Assembly (NCBI GenBank): GCA_024680555.1
Contig: JAILCC010000016.1
Coordinates: 186,001-250,000 of the forward strand
DNA: 64,000 bases
From: a bacterium
GTDB lineage: Bacteria; Cyanobacteriota; Vampirovibrionia; Gastranaerophilales; JAILCC01
Direction: 5' to 3'
The translations under genes and the position numbers were made by a program. The notes below the pieces were generated by a model. The model did not search any database. It was not told where the DNA came from and saw nothing but the letters and a program-made list of their open reading frames with translations. Positions 59,757 through 64,000 of the stretch are shown piece by piece (position 1 is the stretch's first letter; each line of letters begins with the position of its first letter).

Positions 59757-59912
59757 GATTTCTCTCCTAAATAGCTTTGTTCTTAGATAATCTTATACAA
59801 AATATTTATCATTGTACATAAAAATAATTACAAATTCTTAACATAATGGCAATTTTTTATTGTTTGTTTTTTTATATTATATATGGAACGGAACCTTTGG
59901 AGGAGGATTATT

Positions 59913-60383
59913 ATGATTGAGAACGAAATTAAGACACAAGACCAAGTTATTGTAAAAGAACAAGGCAAGACAACATCACCTATCGGTAAATCAGAACAAA
60001 AAGACGAAACCAAGAAAACAAACGGATTTGTTGCATGGCTGAAAGATGCAGACACAGTTGATGAAAACAACGGCAAAGTTGACAAGAAAACAGCTGCAAC
60101 AAGCTTCGCAAAAGGTCTTATTGAAATAGTTAAGACAGTATATACAAAACCATTGGCAAGCGCTATTACAATTGCAGTTGGTGCAGCATTGACAATATTG
60201 GCAGGATATAGTGCAGTAGCAACAGTAATGTGCATAGCAGTTGCGGCGGGCAGTGCAGGGATAGCTTATGCGGGATACAATTTAGCAAAACCGACAACAA
60301 GCAACAATACAAAACAAGCTTATGAAGTTCTCGGTATTTCTACATTCGTTCTGGCTGTTGGTATATACGGTCTTGTATTCTAG
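59913..60383 (+). CDS. Small membrane protein of unknown function
   Basis: 156 residues. The N-terminal 80 residues are polar and charged; then three hydrophobic stretches (PLASAITIAVGAALTILAGY, AVATVMCIAVAAGSAGIAYA, VLGISTFVLAVGIYGLVF). GGAGGAGG before the start at 59913 is very strong; a frame 30 bases longer lacks one. Ala/Gly-rich helices suggest a tightly packed oligomer. No family is recognised. It stands alone, followed by a strong terminator. Confidence 0.75.
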   Translation: MIENEIKTQDQVIVKEQGKTTSPIGKSEQKDETKKTNGFVAWLKDADTVDENNGKVDKKTAATSFAKGLIEIVKTVYTKPLASAITIAVGAALTILAGYSAVATVMCIAVAAGSAGIAYAGYNLAKPTTSNNTKQAYEVLGISTFVLAVGIYGLVF

Positions 60384-60445: not shown

Positions 60446-63400
60446 TTATTTTGAAGCTGAAAAATATGCTTTTAATACATCGCTTAATGAAGCAAAGTCA
60501 TCTGCTGATATACTGCTTTTTAAGCGGTATCCACCTGAAACTTTTCTAAATGCAACCCTGTCAGACTCAGGGAAAGACTCATACATTTTTTTAGAAAATA
60601 TAGCGCTTGTAGTAGAATAATACTTTCTTGTCCGGGTATTTGATGTGCGGGGATTGCTCGTTGTTCCGGAAACAACCTCACCTGAAGCTTGGTCGGTATT
60701 ATCTAAAAATGGAGCAAACATTTCGTCAAATTCTTTTAGTACTTGCTCATTTGCAGCTATTCCTTCCTGTATAGAAAGTTTAGTTTCTTCTAATGAAGAA
60801 AGTTTCTGTTCCAATGCTTCAAGCTCCGCAGCAGATAAATTTCCTGCGTTTATTCTGTTTCTGGTATCTTCAATCTCCCTATCCAGATTTGCAATCTCTT
60901 CTGCCATATCAAGTTCTTCAATACCATTTACAGTATAACTGTATATTACATTATTAGAATGTTCTATCTTTGCTTTCAATTGATTGTATAGTGTTTGAAA
61001 TTTAGTTTTTGTTGCAGCATCAATAGTTATGTTTGAGCCTCTATTAGCTAATTCAGCAGTAATTGCTCCCATTTCTGCCATAATGTTTTTCAGCAACGTA
61101 TCCATAATGGTACTTTGACTTTGGAGTTCAGCGGTATCTGCCTCATATTTTGCCAGAGTATCAGCATCATCCTCCGTATACAACCTATTAGCAAATCTTC
61201 CGGATTCATCTGCTCTCCAATCAATAACAGAAGGGGCACCATTGGGATTTGCGCCTCTGGAATTAGCTGTCCATCTTTCACTGAGTACAGAAAATTGCTC
61301 TGCAGAAATACCATTTCTAAAGTCATAGCCATTTGATACAAGATAATCAAAAAAATCTTTTGTTACTATTTGGGCAGCACCACTTTGTAATAATTCCTGA
61401 ATGTAATCGTTATCGTATGAAGATTTTGTTATGATACCACCGTTTGAGGACAAAGAATATAGTGATGGAGATATAACAGAACCATTTGCTCCAATAATAA
61501 CATACCCTTCTCGTAAAAGATTTCGCGGATTAAGTGTTTTGTATCTCATATTACCGTTACTATCCAGTACACCCACACTTATTACAGTATTATTCATTCC
61601 CTCCATATATTCTTTTAATACTTCATCTACAGCTGCCGATATTTCCAATTGCTCAATCAAGGTACTATAGAGCTGTTCACTAAGCTGTGAATACATATCT
61701 TGTAACTCAGATGATGACTTTGAAGAAAGGTCTTCTAAGATTCCATATTGGGGCAATTCCGCTGCTGTCACCGTTCGTCTTTCTACGGCATGTGTTTTGG
61801 AATCAAGTATTTCAACAAAGTATGTACCATCAGAATTTCGTCTTATTTGAATTTGATCATGCGTTTTTTTGTCAACAATAAGCTTTTCAGTAATTTTTCC
61901 GTTTTCATCGTATTTTGTTCTTTCTGTTTGGTTGGAGTTTGATACAGTTTTACTTGACAAAGAGCCGTCTGCTCTGCGTTCTTCGGTTATATGACTACCA
62001 TTAGAATCATATGTTTTTGTTGTAGATAAAACCAAACCGTTTGCATCTTTTCTGACAACAATCTTAGCTCCGCTTGCATCCGTACTTTCTTCTTTAATTC
62101 CTGTTACATTGCCTGCTGCATCTAAAGATGTTGTTGTAACAGAACCATTGGCTCCATACTCATAAGTTTCTGACCTTGTCGGGTTACCCGTGGTTATTGA
62201 GAAATAATCTGTTCTGGTAACTTTTCCCGAAGAATTAAAATACTCGGTATAGTTATCTGTTCCGCCACCGTTTACTACTTCTCTTGTATGTGATGAAACT
62301 TTATTGTTTGCGTCATAGGTGTATAAATCCTGATAATAAATACGTCCATCACTATAATAATGAATATCGGCTATTTGGTTTCCTCTTGAGTCATATTCTC
62401 TCCCATTAGAACCATCACTGCTTAACACTACTACATTCTGGTTTCCATCAAGCCATGCTCTTTCTGATGAAGATAGAGTTATAGTAACATTATTTGCAAA
62501 AGTTATCGTATTACCGGATATTACAGGCGCTGCAGCACTTCCTGCCCGTGAAACAGGATTTTGCCCGGCTTCCGTAACATTACCATTTTGGTCATAGTAT
62601 GTTATAGTGCCGTCACTCATTGTGATAGCAACAGTACCGTCAGTATTTATTGTAGCTTGTGCTCCTCTTGGTACTGACACTTGTTTATCCGCACTGAAGT
62701 ATATCATGTTACTGCTAGTACGGGTAACACTATAATCCATTGTCGGGTAGCTTCCTTCTGTAGGATAACCGTTTCCTTTGTAATTATTATTAACCACTGT
62801 ATAATTTACGCTGCCATCGGTCGCATATCCTGTTGTTGTCAGTTTCGTCGGCTGTCCGTTCACATAATTTTCGCAAACATTTTCTGAACTTGCACCATTT
62901 GAGGTATACCATCTGCTTGAAGTTCTACTTGTATTGCCATTTGCATCATATGAAGCACTATAAACATATTTGGAGCCATCGGGGTCGATTACTTCTTGAT
63001 ATACTGTTTTACCGTCACTATTCCATCTATGTTTTACAGTTTCACCGCTTGATGAAACAAATTCCACCGTACCATCAGAATGAACTATTGCATTTTGTCC
63101 TTCCGGAATTATATAACCGCCACCTCCGGGAACTGTAATTCTATTGCCTAAAATTTGAATCCATGACGGAACTCCTTCTTCAACCGTAATATTGGAAGAA
63201 GGTGCTCCTGCTCCTTGTTTTGTAGTCAAAACTGCATCTCTTGCATTCGGATCTACAACATTACCGTCTTTGTCATAATTTGTTGTAGTACCATCTTTTT
63301 TCTTAACCGTAACAGTACCGTCAGCATTTATTGTAACTTCTGAACCTTGTTCCAAAGAAAGCTTTTGGTTGGGATTAAAATATAATATCCTGCAGGAATT

Positions 63401-64000
63401 ATAATTACCAAGTCCATAATTCAAGGACGGATAACTCATTTCTGCCAGAGAGGCGTTTCCGTTGTAGTGATTGTTTATTACCTTATAATCTACGCTGCCA
63501 TCAGATGCATACGCTATTGTTGTTAATTTTGTCGGAACCCCATTTACATAATTTTCGTGAATATTTTCTACTCCGTTACCATTGGAATCATAATATGTGC
63601 TTGACAATTTACTCATATTACCATTTGCATCATATTGAGTAGAGTAGACATATCTTTCACCGTTGCTCTTTTCCATTTCACGATACTCTGTCTTGCCATC
63701 CGAATTCCATTTGTGTTTTATTTTTTCACCCGACGGCGTAAACAGTTCTACAGTACCATCAGCATGAACTACTGCACTTGAACGACCTGAAACAACATAA
63801 CCATCGCCGTCTTGCCCCATAATGGAATTACCAATAATTTGAATCCACGACGGTGCACCATTTTCAACCGTAATATTGGGAGAAGGCATATATGACCTTT
63901 GTTCCGCAAGAAAAGTTTTTTCATCTTCCGAAACGACACCATCACCATCTAAATCAAGACAATCATCAAACAGATTCCAGTCCTCTCTGTCTACACGCCC
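60446..64000 (-). CDS. Giant YD-type repeat protein with EF-hand, 5' end outside window
   Basis: 1184 residues are visible and the frame stays open to the right edge, so the true start lies beyond it. The Met at 63889 is internal. Visible residues 16-27 (DLDGDGVVSEDE) are a perfect EF-hand calcium loop of dockerin-like style. Two 228-residue units follow (from about 63889 and 63205), each starting SPNITVENGAPSW-like and containing YD-repeat strands (YDANGNMSKLSSTYYDSNGN). A third, looser YD region (YTYDANNKVSSHTR, YDSNGSHITEERR) and a long coiled coil (about 900-1090) come next. A 30-residue terminal segment completes the protein. Probably cell-surface or secreted; RHS-like beta fibre is likely, but no toxin domain is visible. 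Confidence 0.8.
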   Translation of the reverse strand, partial: GRVDREDWNLFDDCLDLDGDGVVSEDEKTFLAEQRSYMPSPNITVENGAPSWIQIIGNSIMGQDGDGYVVSGRSSAVVHADGTVELFTPSGEKIKHKWNSDGKTEYREMEKSNGERYVYSTQYDANGNMSKLSSTYYDSNGNGVENIHENYVNGVPTKLTTIAYASDGSVDYKVINNHYNGNASLAEMSYPSLNYGLGNYNSCRILYFNPNQKLSLEQGSEVTINADGTVTVKKKDGTTTNYDKDGNVVDPNARDAVLTTKQGAGAPSSNITVEEGVPSWIQILGNRITVPGGGGYIIPEGQNAIVHSDGTVEFVSSSGETVKHRWNSDGKTVYQEVIDPDGSKYVYSASYDANGNTSRTSSRWYTSNGASSENVCENYVNGQPTKLTTTGYATDGSVNYTVVNNNYKGNGYPTEGSYPTMDYSVTRTSSNMIYFSADKQVSVPRGAQATINTDGTVAITMSDGTITYYDQNGNVTEAGQNPVSRAGSAAAPVISGNTITFANNVTITLSSSERAWLDGNQNVVVLSSDGSNGREYDSRGNQIADIHYYSDGRIYYQDLYTYDANNKVSSHTREVVNGGGTDNYTEYFNSSGKVTRTDYFSITTGNPTRSETYEYGANGSVTTTSLDAAGNVTGIKEESTDASGAKIVVRKDANGLVLSTTKTYDSNGSHITEERRADGSLSSKTVSNSNQTERTKYDENGKITEKLIVDKKTHDQIQIRRNSDGTYFVEILDSKTHAVERRTVTAAELPQYGILEDLSSKSSSELQDMYSQLSEQLYSTLIEQLEISAAVDEVLKEYMEGMNNTVISVGVLDSNGNMRYKTLNPRNLLREGYVIIGANGSVISPSLYSLSSNGGIITKSSYDNDYIQELLQSGAAQIVTKDFFDYLVSNGYDFRNGISAEQFSVLSERWTANSRGANPNGAPSVIDWRADESGRFANRLYTEDDADTLAKYEADTAELQSQSTIMDTLLKNIMAEMGAITAELANRGSNITIDAATKTKFQTLYNQLKAKIEHSNNVIYSYTVNGIEELDMAEEIANLDREIEDTRNRINAGNLSAAELEALEQKLSSLEETKLSIQEGIAANEQVLKEFDEMFAPFLDNTDQASGEVVSGTTSNPRTSNTRTRKYYSTTSAIFSKKMYESFPESDRVAFRKVSGGYRLKSSISADDFASLSDVLKAYFSASK
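62520..63889 (-). repeat. Tandem 684-bp coding duplication
   Basis: CAACCGTAATATTGG recurs at 63865 and 63181 (684 bases apart), and the encoded 228-residue units match through their length (PSWIQIIGN / PSWIQILGN; ENYVNGVPTKLTT / ENYVNGQPTKLTT; YFNPNQKLSLEQG / YFSADKQVSVPRG). Confidence 0.85.
63920..63955 (-). other. EF-hand calcium-binding loop
   Basis: Codes for DLDGDGVVSEDE: Asp at positions 1, 3 and 5, Gly at 6, Glu at 12. A second, less complete acidic stretch (GRVDREDW) lies just upstream at the window edge, as in paired dockerin-type EF-hands. Confidence 0.75.

What the first reader, a model, noticed from the sequence alone, without database searches (positions are those of the whole stretch)
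60446..64000. Giant EF-hand and YD-type repeat protein with a 684-bp duplication
The open frame continues past the window edge. It joins a dockerin-like EF-hand, two long near-identical 228-residue units, a looser YD region and a coiled coil. Recent tandem duplication of such a long unit suggests active growth of a surface fibre or adhesin. The EF-hand suggests calcium-linked assembly.
Basis: partly seen in the sequence, partly recalled or inferred. Interest (0 to 1): 0.6.

Follow-up and report, generated by a model that had tools for sequence, protein, structure and literature searches.

The report
Leaderless repeat protein, new gut-bacterial family
The flagged gene encodes a 1228-residue repeat protein with no ordinary secretion signal, whose tail belongs to a large undescribed protein family found in every sampled member of one gut-bacterial order; these proteins may be exported through a flagellum-like machine that is kept even in species that have lost flagellin.

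Summary
The gene is real. It starts 132 bases beyond the window edge and encodes 1228 aa with a good ribosome site. Corrections: the two ~228-residue units are only 54% identical (66% in DNA, dS about 1.0), so the duplication is old. The EF-hands are a compact pair with a 20-residue period, shared with two paralogues, but not a dockerin. No cohesin was found and there is no Sec signal. The repeat region is modelled as a beta-meander resembling Rhs/teneurin YD arrays and OspA; the units were found in no other genome of 383 in the order.

The main result lies in the C-terminal third. It is a divergent copy of an undescribed family ('MGLAASQ') with conserved N- and C-terminal helices around a hypervariable middle. 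The family is present in 131/131 sampled Gastranaerophilales genomes and 0/161 others in the phylum, with several copies per genome, and has no Pfam or NCBIfam model. Members have flagellin-like layout but no detectable homology to flagellin. The same order keeps a basal body and FlhA/FlhB export gate even in genomes without flagellin.

Best explanation: a non-Sec extracellular protein exported by that apparatus, projecting a calcium-stabilised YD arm. Export is inferred; gene linkage gives no support (3 of 78 loci).

The parts
60446..64000 (-). Whole gene as seen in the window (residues 45-1228 of 1228; the start codon lies at position 64132, outside the window)
63980..64000 (-). EF-hand loop 1, DFNNDGRVDRED (residues 40-51); continues to 64015, outside the window
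63920..63955 (-). EF-hand loop 2, DLDGDGVVSEDE (residues 60-71), 20 residues after loop 1
63251..63886 (-). Repeat unit 1 (residues 83-294), YD-type beta-meander
62570..63202 (-). Repeat unit 2 (residues 311-521), 54% identical to unit 1
61784..62506 (-). Looser YD-like region (residues 543-783); part of it (651-783) is 27% identical to leaderless paralogue yd583, E 2e-5
61043..61714 (-). Divergent 'MGLAASQ' module (residues 807-1030): N-helix, middle domain, DWR..YTEDD motif, C-helix
   Evidence: (HMM E 2e-37)
60716..61018 (-). C-terminal coiled coil (residues 1039-1139), absent from ordinary family members
60455..60592 (-). Small C-terminal domain (residues 1181-1226), no known match
59883..60383 (+). 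Small membrane protein, convergent neighbour; with aroF/tyrA it marks a locus that in the same-genus genome G001 carries two MGLAASQ genes (L034)

Best explanation
This is a leaderless multidomain protein of a Gastranaerophilales gut bacterium: a short N-terminus with a compact calcium-binding EF-hand pair, about 700 residues of YD/Rhs-like beta-meander containing two old ~228-residue duplicates, and a C-terminal module belonging to an order-wide family (here called MGLAASQ). Shown: gene structure, lack of a Sec signal, the shared EF module, family membership of the C-terminal module, its order-wide distribution, and conservation of a flagellar-type basal body and export gate, including in genomes without detectable flagellin. 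Inferred: MGLAASQ proteins leave the cell through that export gate and assemble by their helical hairpins into, or onto, a surface structure; this giant member docks by its C-terminal hairpin and projects the beta-meander, which calcium binding at the EF pair helps to fold or orient outside the cell.
For: C-terminal third matches the MGLAASQ profile at E 2e-37 and aligns through both helices and the DWR/YTEDD motifs. Family in 131/131 sampled genomes of the order, 0/161 others in the phylum. Across 54 non-redundant members, joined N- and C-ends are detectably alike in 1431/1431 pairs, middles in only 124/1431, lengths 196-763 aa; the model shows N-helix 2-49 and C-helix 294-351. FHIPEP in 131/131 of the same genomes. 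Among 38 f2 genomes, 0 have flagellin but 37 keep a full-length FHIPEP and 37 keep FlhB. Own genome: no flagellin found, but flgF/G, flgC, fliE, fliF, fliH, flhA in one cluster, syntenic in two relatives with FlhA 85-91% identical. Leaderless EF-hand/YD/MORN-type proteins lie near small MGLAASQ genes elsewhere in the genome. The beta region matches Rhs cores, teneurins and OspA by Foldseek (8qja, 7.7e-14).
Against: MGLAASQ loci are not linked to flagellar genes (3 of 78). No detectable homology to flagellin or FlgL (hhalign probability 0.3%) and no PDB match for the family fold. This protein lacks the MGLAASQ N-terminus, so if that end carries the export signal it must use another. FHIPEP is universal in the order, so co-occurrence there does not discriminate. 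No experimental localisation exists. The whole-protein model has modest confidence (mean pLDDT 69.7, pTM 0.34).
Confidence: 0.4

Rival explanations
1. Cytosolic or envelope-internal scaffold: the protein and the MGLAASQ family never leave the cytosol; coiled-coil ends make oligomers and the YD region is a rigid spacer.
For: No Sec signal; no linkage to export genes; no Pfam adhesion domain in any large family member.
Against: Hypervariable middles between invariant ends resemble surface-exposed polymers; Ca-type EF loops and YD/Rhs-like arrays are usually extracytoplasmic (general knowledge); several paralogous leaderless repeat proteins share the style.
Confidence: 0.3
2. Sec-independent surface adhesin unrelated to the flagellar gate, exported by another route (type I, lysis or vesicles), with the MGLAASQ module as a membrane or partner anchor.
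For: Domain style of a surface protein; universality of FHIPEP leaves the route undecided; no linkage.
Against: No RTX-type C-terminal signal seen by eye (not tested by tool); the 2013 genome paper reports no type I system in gut Melainabacteria (PMC3787301).
Confidence: 0.17
3. One reading: a dockerin-bearing, Sec-exported adhesin assembled through cohesin and growing by recent unit duplication.
For: EF-hands and duplicated units exist; two paralogues carry Dockerin_1-type matches above cut-off.
Against: No Sec signal, no Dockerin_1 match in this protein, no cohesin found in the genome, duplication old (dS about 1).
Confidence: 0.03
4. Rhs/YD toxin-carrier protein (polymorphic effector), the YD region forming a cocoon around a payload.
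For: Foldseek best matches are T6SS-linked Rhs cores; RHS_repeat hit at E 0.078.
Against: RHS_repeat below cut-off, no Rhs-core or toxin domain, TM-scores 0.05-0.10; the C-terminus is the MGLAASQ module and a coiled coil, not a variable toxin.
Confidence: 0.04

Closest known systems
Flagellin / hook-associated proteins (FliC, FlgL)
   Same: Leaderless; conserved N- and C-terminal helices around a hypervariable middle of variable length; multicopy; order has flagellar export gates
   Different: No detectable sequence homology (hhalign 0.3%); no PF00669; family present where no flagellin is found
Reduced flagellar basal bodies used for protein export (Buchnera; Myxococcales NF-T3SS), as discussed in PMC3459982
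   Same: Basal body and export gate kept without a motile flagellum
   Different: Here order-wide in Gastranaerophilales, with a separate lineage-specific family as the candidate substrate; export not shown
Rhs/YD-repeat proteins and teneurins; OspA single-layer beta-sheet
   Same: Beta-strands joined by DG/NG turns; significant Foldseek local matches
   Different: Sub-threshold RHS_repeat, no core or autoproteolysis domain, no toxin tail
Dockerin type I / EF-hand modules
   Same: DxNxDGxxDxxD loops in tandem
   Different: 20-residue period; no Dockerin_1 match; no cohesin found

Membership tests
MGLAASQ family (defined here) | Significant match to the family profile over N-helix, middle and C-helix | tested here: met
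   HMM E 2e-37; alignment; genome search 1.3e-13 over model positions 32-227
MGLAASQ family (defined here) | Protein begins with MGxxASQ | tested here: not met
   The module is internal; the head is replaced by the EF-hand/YD arm: a divergent fusion, not an ordinary member
Flagellin / FlgL | Homology to Flagellin_N or FlgL | tested here: not met
   hhalign probability 0.3%; no flagellin in own genome
Flagellar/T3SS substrate | Export depends on FlhA/FlhB | not testable with these tools
   Only co-occurrence and conserved basal-body cluster; linkage 3 of 78
Dockerin type I | PF00404 match above cut-off | tested here: not met
Dockerin type I | Cohesin partner in genome | tested here: not met
   0 matches, genome 87% complete
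EF-hand | Two canonical 12-residue Ca loops | tested here: met
   Loops at 40-51 and 60-71, conserved in ef885 and ef731; Pfam score below cut-off
Rhs/YD protein | RHS_repeat above cut-off plus Rhs core | tested here: not met
   fold resemblance only
Sec-exported protein | N-terminal hydrophobic signal | tested here: not met
   hydropathy; start supported by ribosome site

The most novel reading that the evidence does not exclude
Gastranaerophilales have turned a conserved basal body with its FlhA2/FlhB gate into a general secretion or surface-assembly machine, kept after loss of flagellin, whose substrates are an unrecognised multicopy family with flagellin-like layout but no flagellin ancestry (MGLAASQ) and giant calcium-binding YD-repeat fusions such as this one.
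Probability: 0.3. Interest if true: 0.85.

Novelty: new variant of a known kind. Interest (0 to 1): 0.5.

Why it matters
Partial flagellar gene sets in gut Melainabacteria have been read as loss or reduction (PMC3787301, PMC4040986). If the retained export gate serves a large, variable, order-specific surface family, it would be an independent turn of the flagellum to secretion, and would name the main candidate host-facing proteins of a common but little-cultured gut order.

Tried and rejected
Dockerin/cohesin assembly. Recent duplication. Flagellin homology. PDB match for the family fold: best hits were weak coiled-coil matches to V-ATPase subunits, none below E 0.001. Linkage of family genes to flagellar genes: 3 of 78 loci, no support. 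FlgE_D2 search gave nothing in 60 genomes, including those with flagellin, and missed B. subtilis among the controls, so it is uninformative. Pfam on ten family members: no domain above cut-off. Other genomes with the 228-residue units: none. Literature: no held paper linking Gastranaerophilales with a type III secretion role. An N-terminal NF.[AG] motif in other leaderless proteins: 6 seen against 2.1 expected, too weak to use.

Full report
OBSERVATION. The window is G000:C24:186001-250000. The minus-strand frame ending at 60446 runs off the edge. The neighbouring contig sequence shows its start at window position 64132, with 'aataaggagatacaagcATG', giving 1228 aa. Repeats 681-684 bp apart are confirmed, but the units are 53.6% identical over 211 aligned residues, 66% in DNA, with dS about 0.99 and dN about 0.35. 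They are an old, selectively maintained duplication. The finding's 'near-identical' and 'recent' are not supported.

ANATOMY. Residues 40-51 and 60-71 are two EF-hand loops with a 20-residue period. The same compact pair occurs in leaderless paralogues ef885 (43% identity, E 3.5e-8) and ef731. Residues 83-783 are modelled as a continuous beta-meander with short DG/NG turns; DG/NG pairs number 37 against about 11 expected from composition. Foldseek places it nearest Rhs cores, teneurins and OspA, with strong local E-values but low TM-scores, so this is a resemblance of repeat type, not proof of a closed shell. Residues 807-1030 are an MGLAASQ module, followed by a coiled coil and a small C-terminal domain. 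No hydrophobic stretch stands at the N-terminus.

THE FAMILY. The C-terminal match led to small tandem genes in the own genome and relatives that begin MGLAASQ. Twelve were aligned. A genome-contig scan returned 78 loci, nearly all named or assigned as Gastranaerophilales or gut MAGs. In a phylum-wide sample of 292 genomes the family is in 131/131 of the order and 0/161 outside it. Ends are conserved, middles are not. AlphaFold2 gives two long terminal helices around a small domain (mean pLDDT 79), with no PDB match. No Pfam or NCBIfam model covers it. Profile comparison with flagellins and FlgL from the same order shows no homology. It is therefore flagellin-like in layout only. The 228-residue units, by contrast, were found in no other genome of 383 in the order; six others gave only short weak matches.

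EXPORT. FHIPEP (FlhA) occurs in 131/131 of the same order genomes and 22 of the 161 others. Scores fall in two groups: one of roughly 870-890 bits that largely accompanies flagellin, and one of roughly 690-735 bits found almost throughout the order. Flagellin is found in 21 of 60 relatives, not in the own genome and in 0 of 38 f2 genomes; 37 of those 38 keep a full-length FHIPEP and 37 keep FlhB. In the own genome the second-type FlhA sits in a cluster with flgF/G, flgC, fliE, fliF and fliH, with flgB just under its cut-off. The cluster is syntenic in G002 and G003 with FlhA 85-91% identical, which argues against decay. Earlier papers describe partial flagellar sets and loss of motility in this order (PMC4040986, PMC3787301, PMC5877343). 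A basal body kept for secretion has been proposed for Buchnera (PMC3459982). The weak points are that family genes are not near flagellar genes (3 of 78), that FHIPEP is universal in the order, and that nothing here shows localisation.

VERDICT. The protein is a lineage-specific fusion of a conserved EF-hand pair, a YD-type beta arm and a divergent module of an undescribed order-wide family. That part is well supported. Export through a retained flagellar gate and surface display is the best-fitting mechanism, at about 0.4. The window's organism is a Gastranaerophilales: its genus-mate contig G001:C145 matches JAKSUS010000034.1, a horse-faeces MAG, by length and gene coordinates. The genome is 87% complete, so absences in it are provisional.

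Noticed in passing
L140:11126-12877 (-): Leaderless 583-aa protein with an EF-hand loop, YD-type repeats and a thioredoxin domain above the Pfam cut-off, plus a second CxxC stretch: the closest architectural relative of the finding in the same genome.
   Followed up: partly
L029:9371-12028 (-), L030:7931-10126 (+), L140:11126-12877 (-): Shared leaderless N-terminus MEIxxxxFexlxx..FEDLDVNxDxxI...LLNSVDE in three large proteins.
   Followed up: partly
L041:9549-11006 (-) and L042:6972-7979 (+): Two shorter genes related to the C-terminal part of FHIPEP (485 and 335 aa), separate from the export cluster; a copy like the 485-aa one appears in nearly all sampled relatives.
   Followed up: no
L138:5698-9330 (-): Low-complexity 1210-aa coiled-coil protein beside an MGLAASQ gene, with two fairly hydrophobic stretches, only one of which passed a TM threshold; no Pfam match.
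   Followed up: partly
L032:1426-3939 (-): Leaderless 837-aa protein near two MGLAASQ genes, with a NolX match at 9.2e-6, just under the Pfam cut-off.
   Followed up: no
L139:7284-9384 (+): Small MGLAASQ-type gene directly followed by a leaderless 545-aa coiled-coil protein ending in KNGxxYTG-like repeats.
   Followed up: no
window:52602-53606, window:55130-56881 and other loci: Several leaderless proteins carry an early NF.[AG]/SFRG-like motif; counted 6 against 2.1 expected, too weak to rely on.
   Followed up: partly
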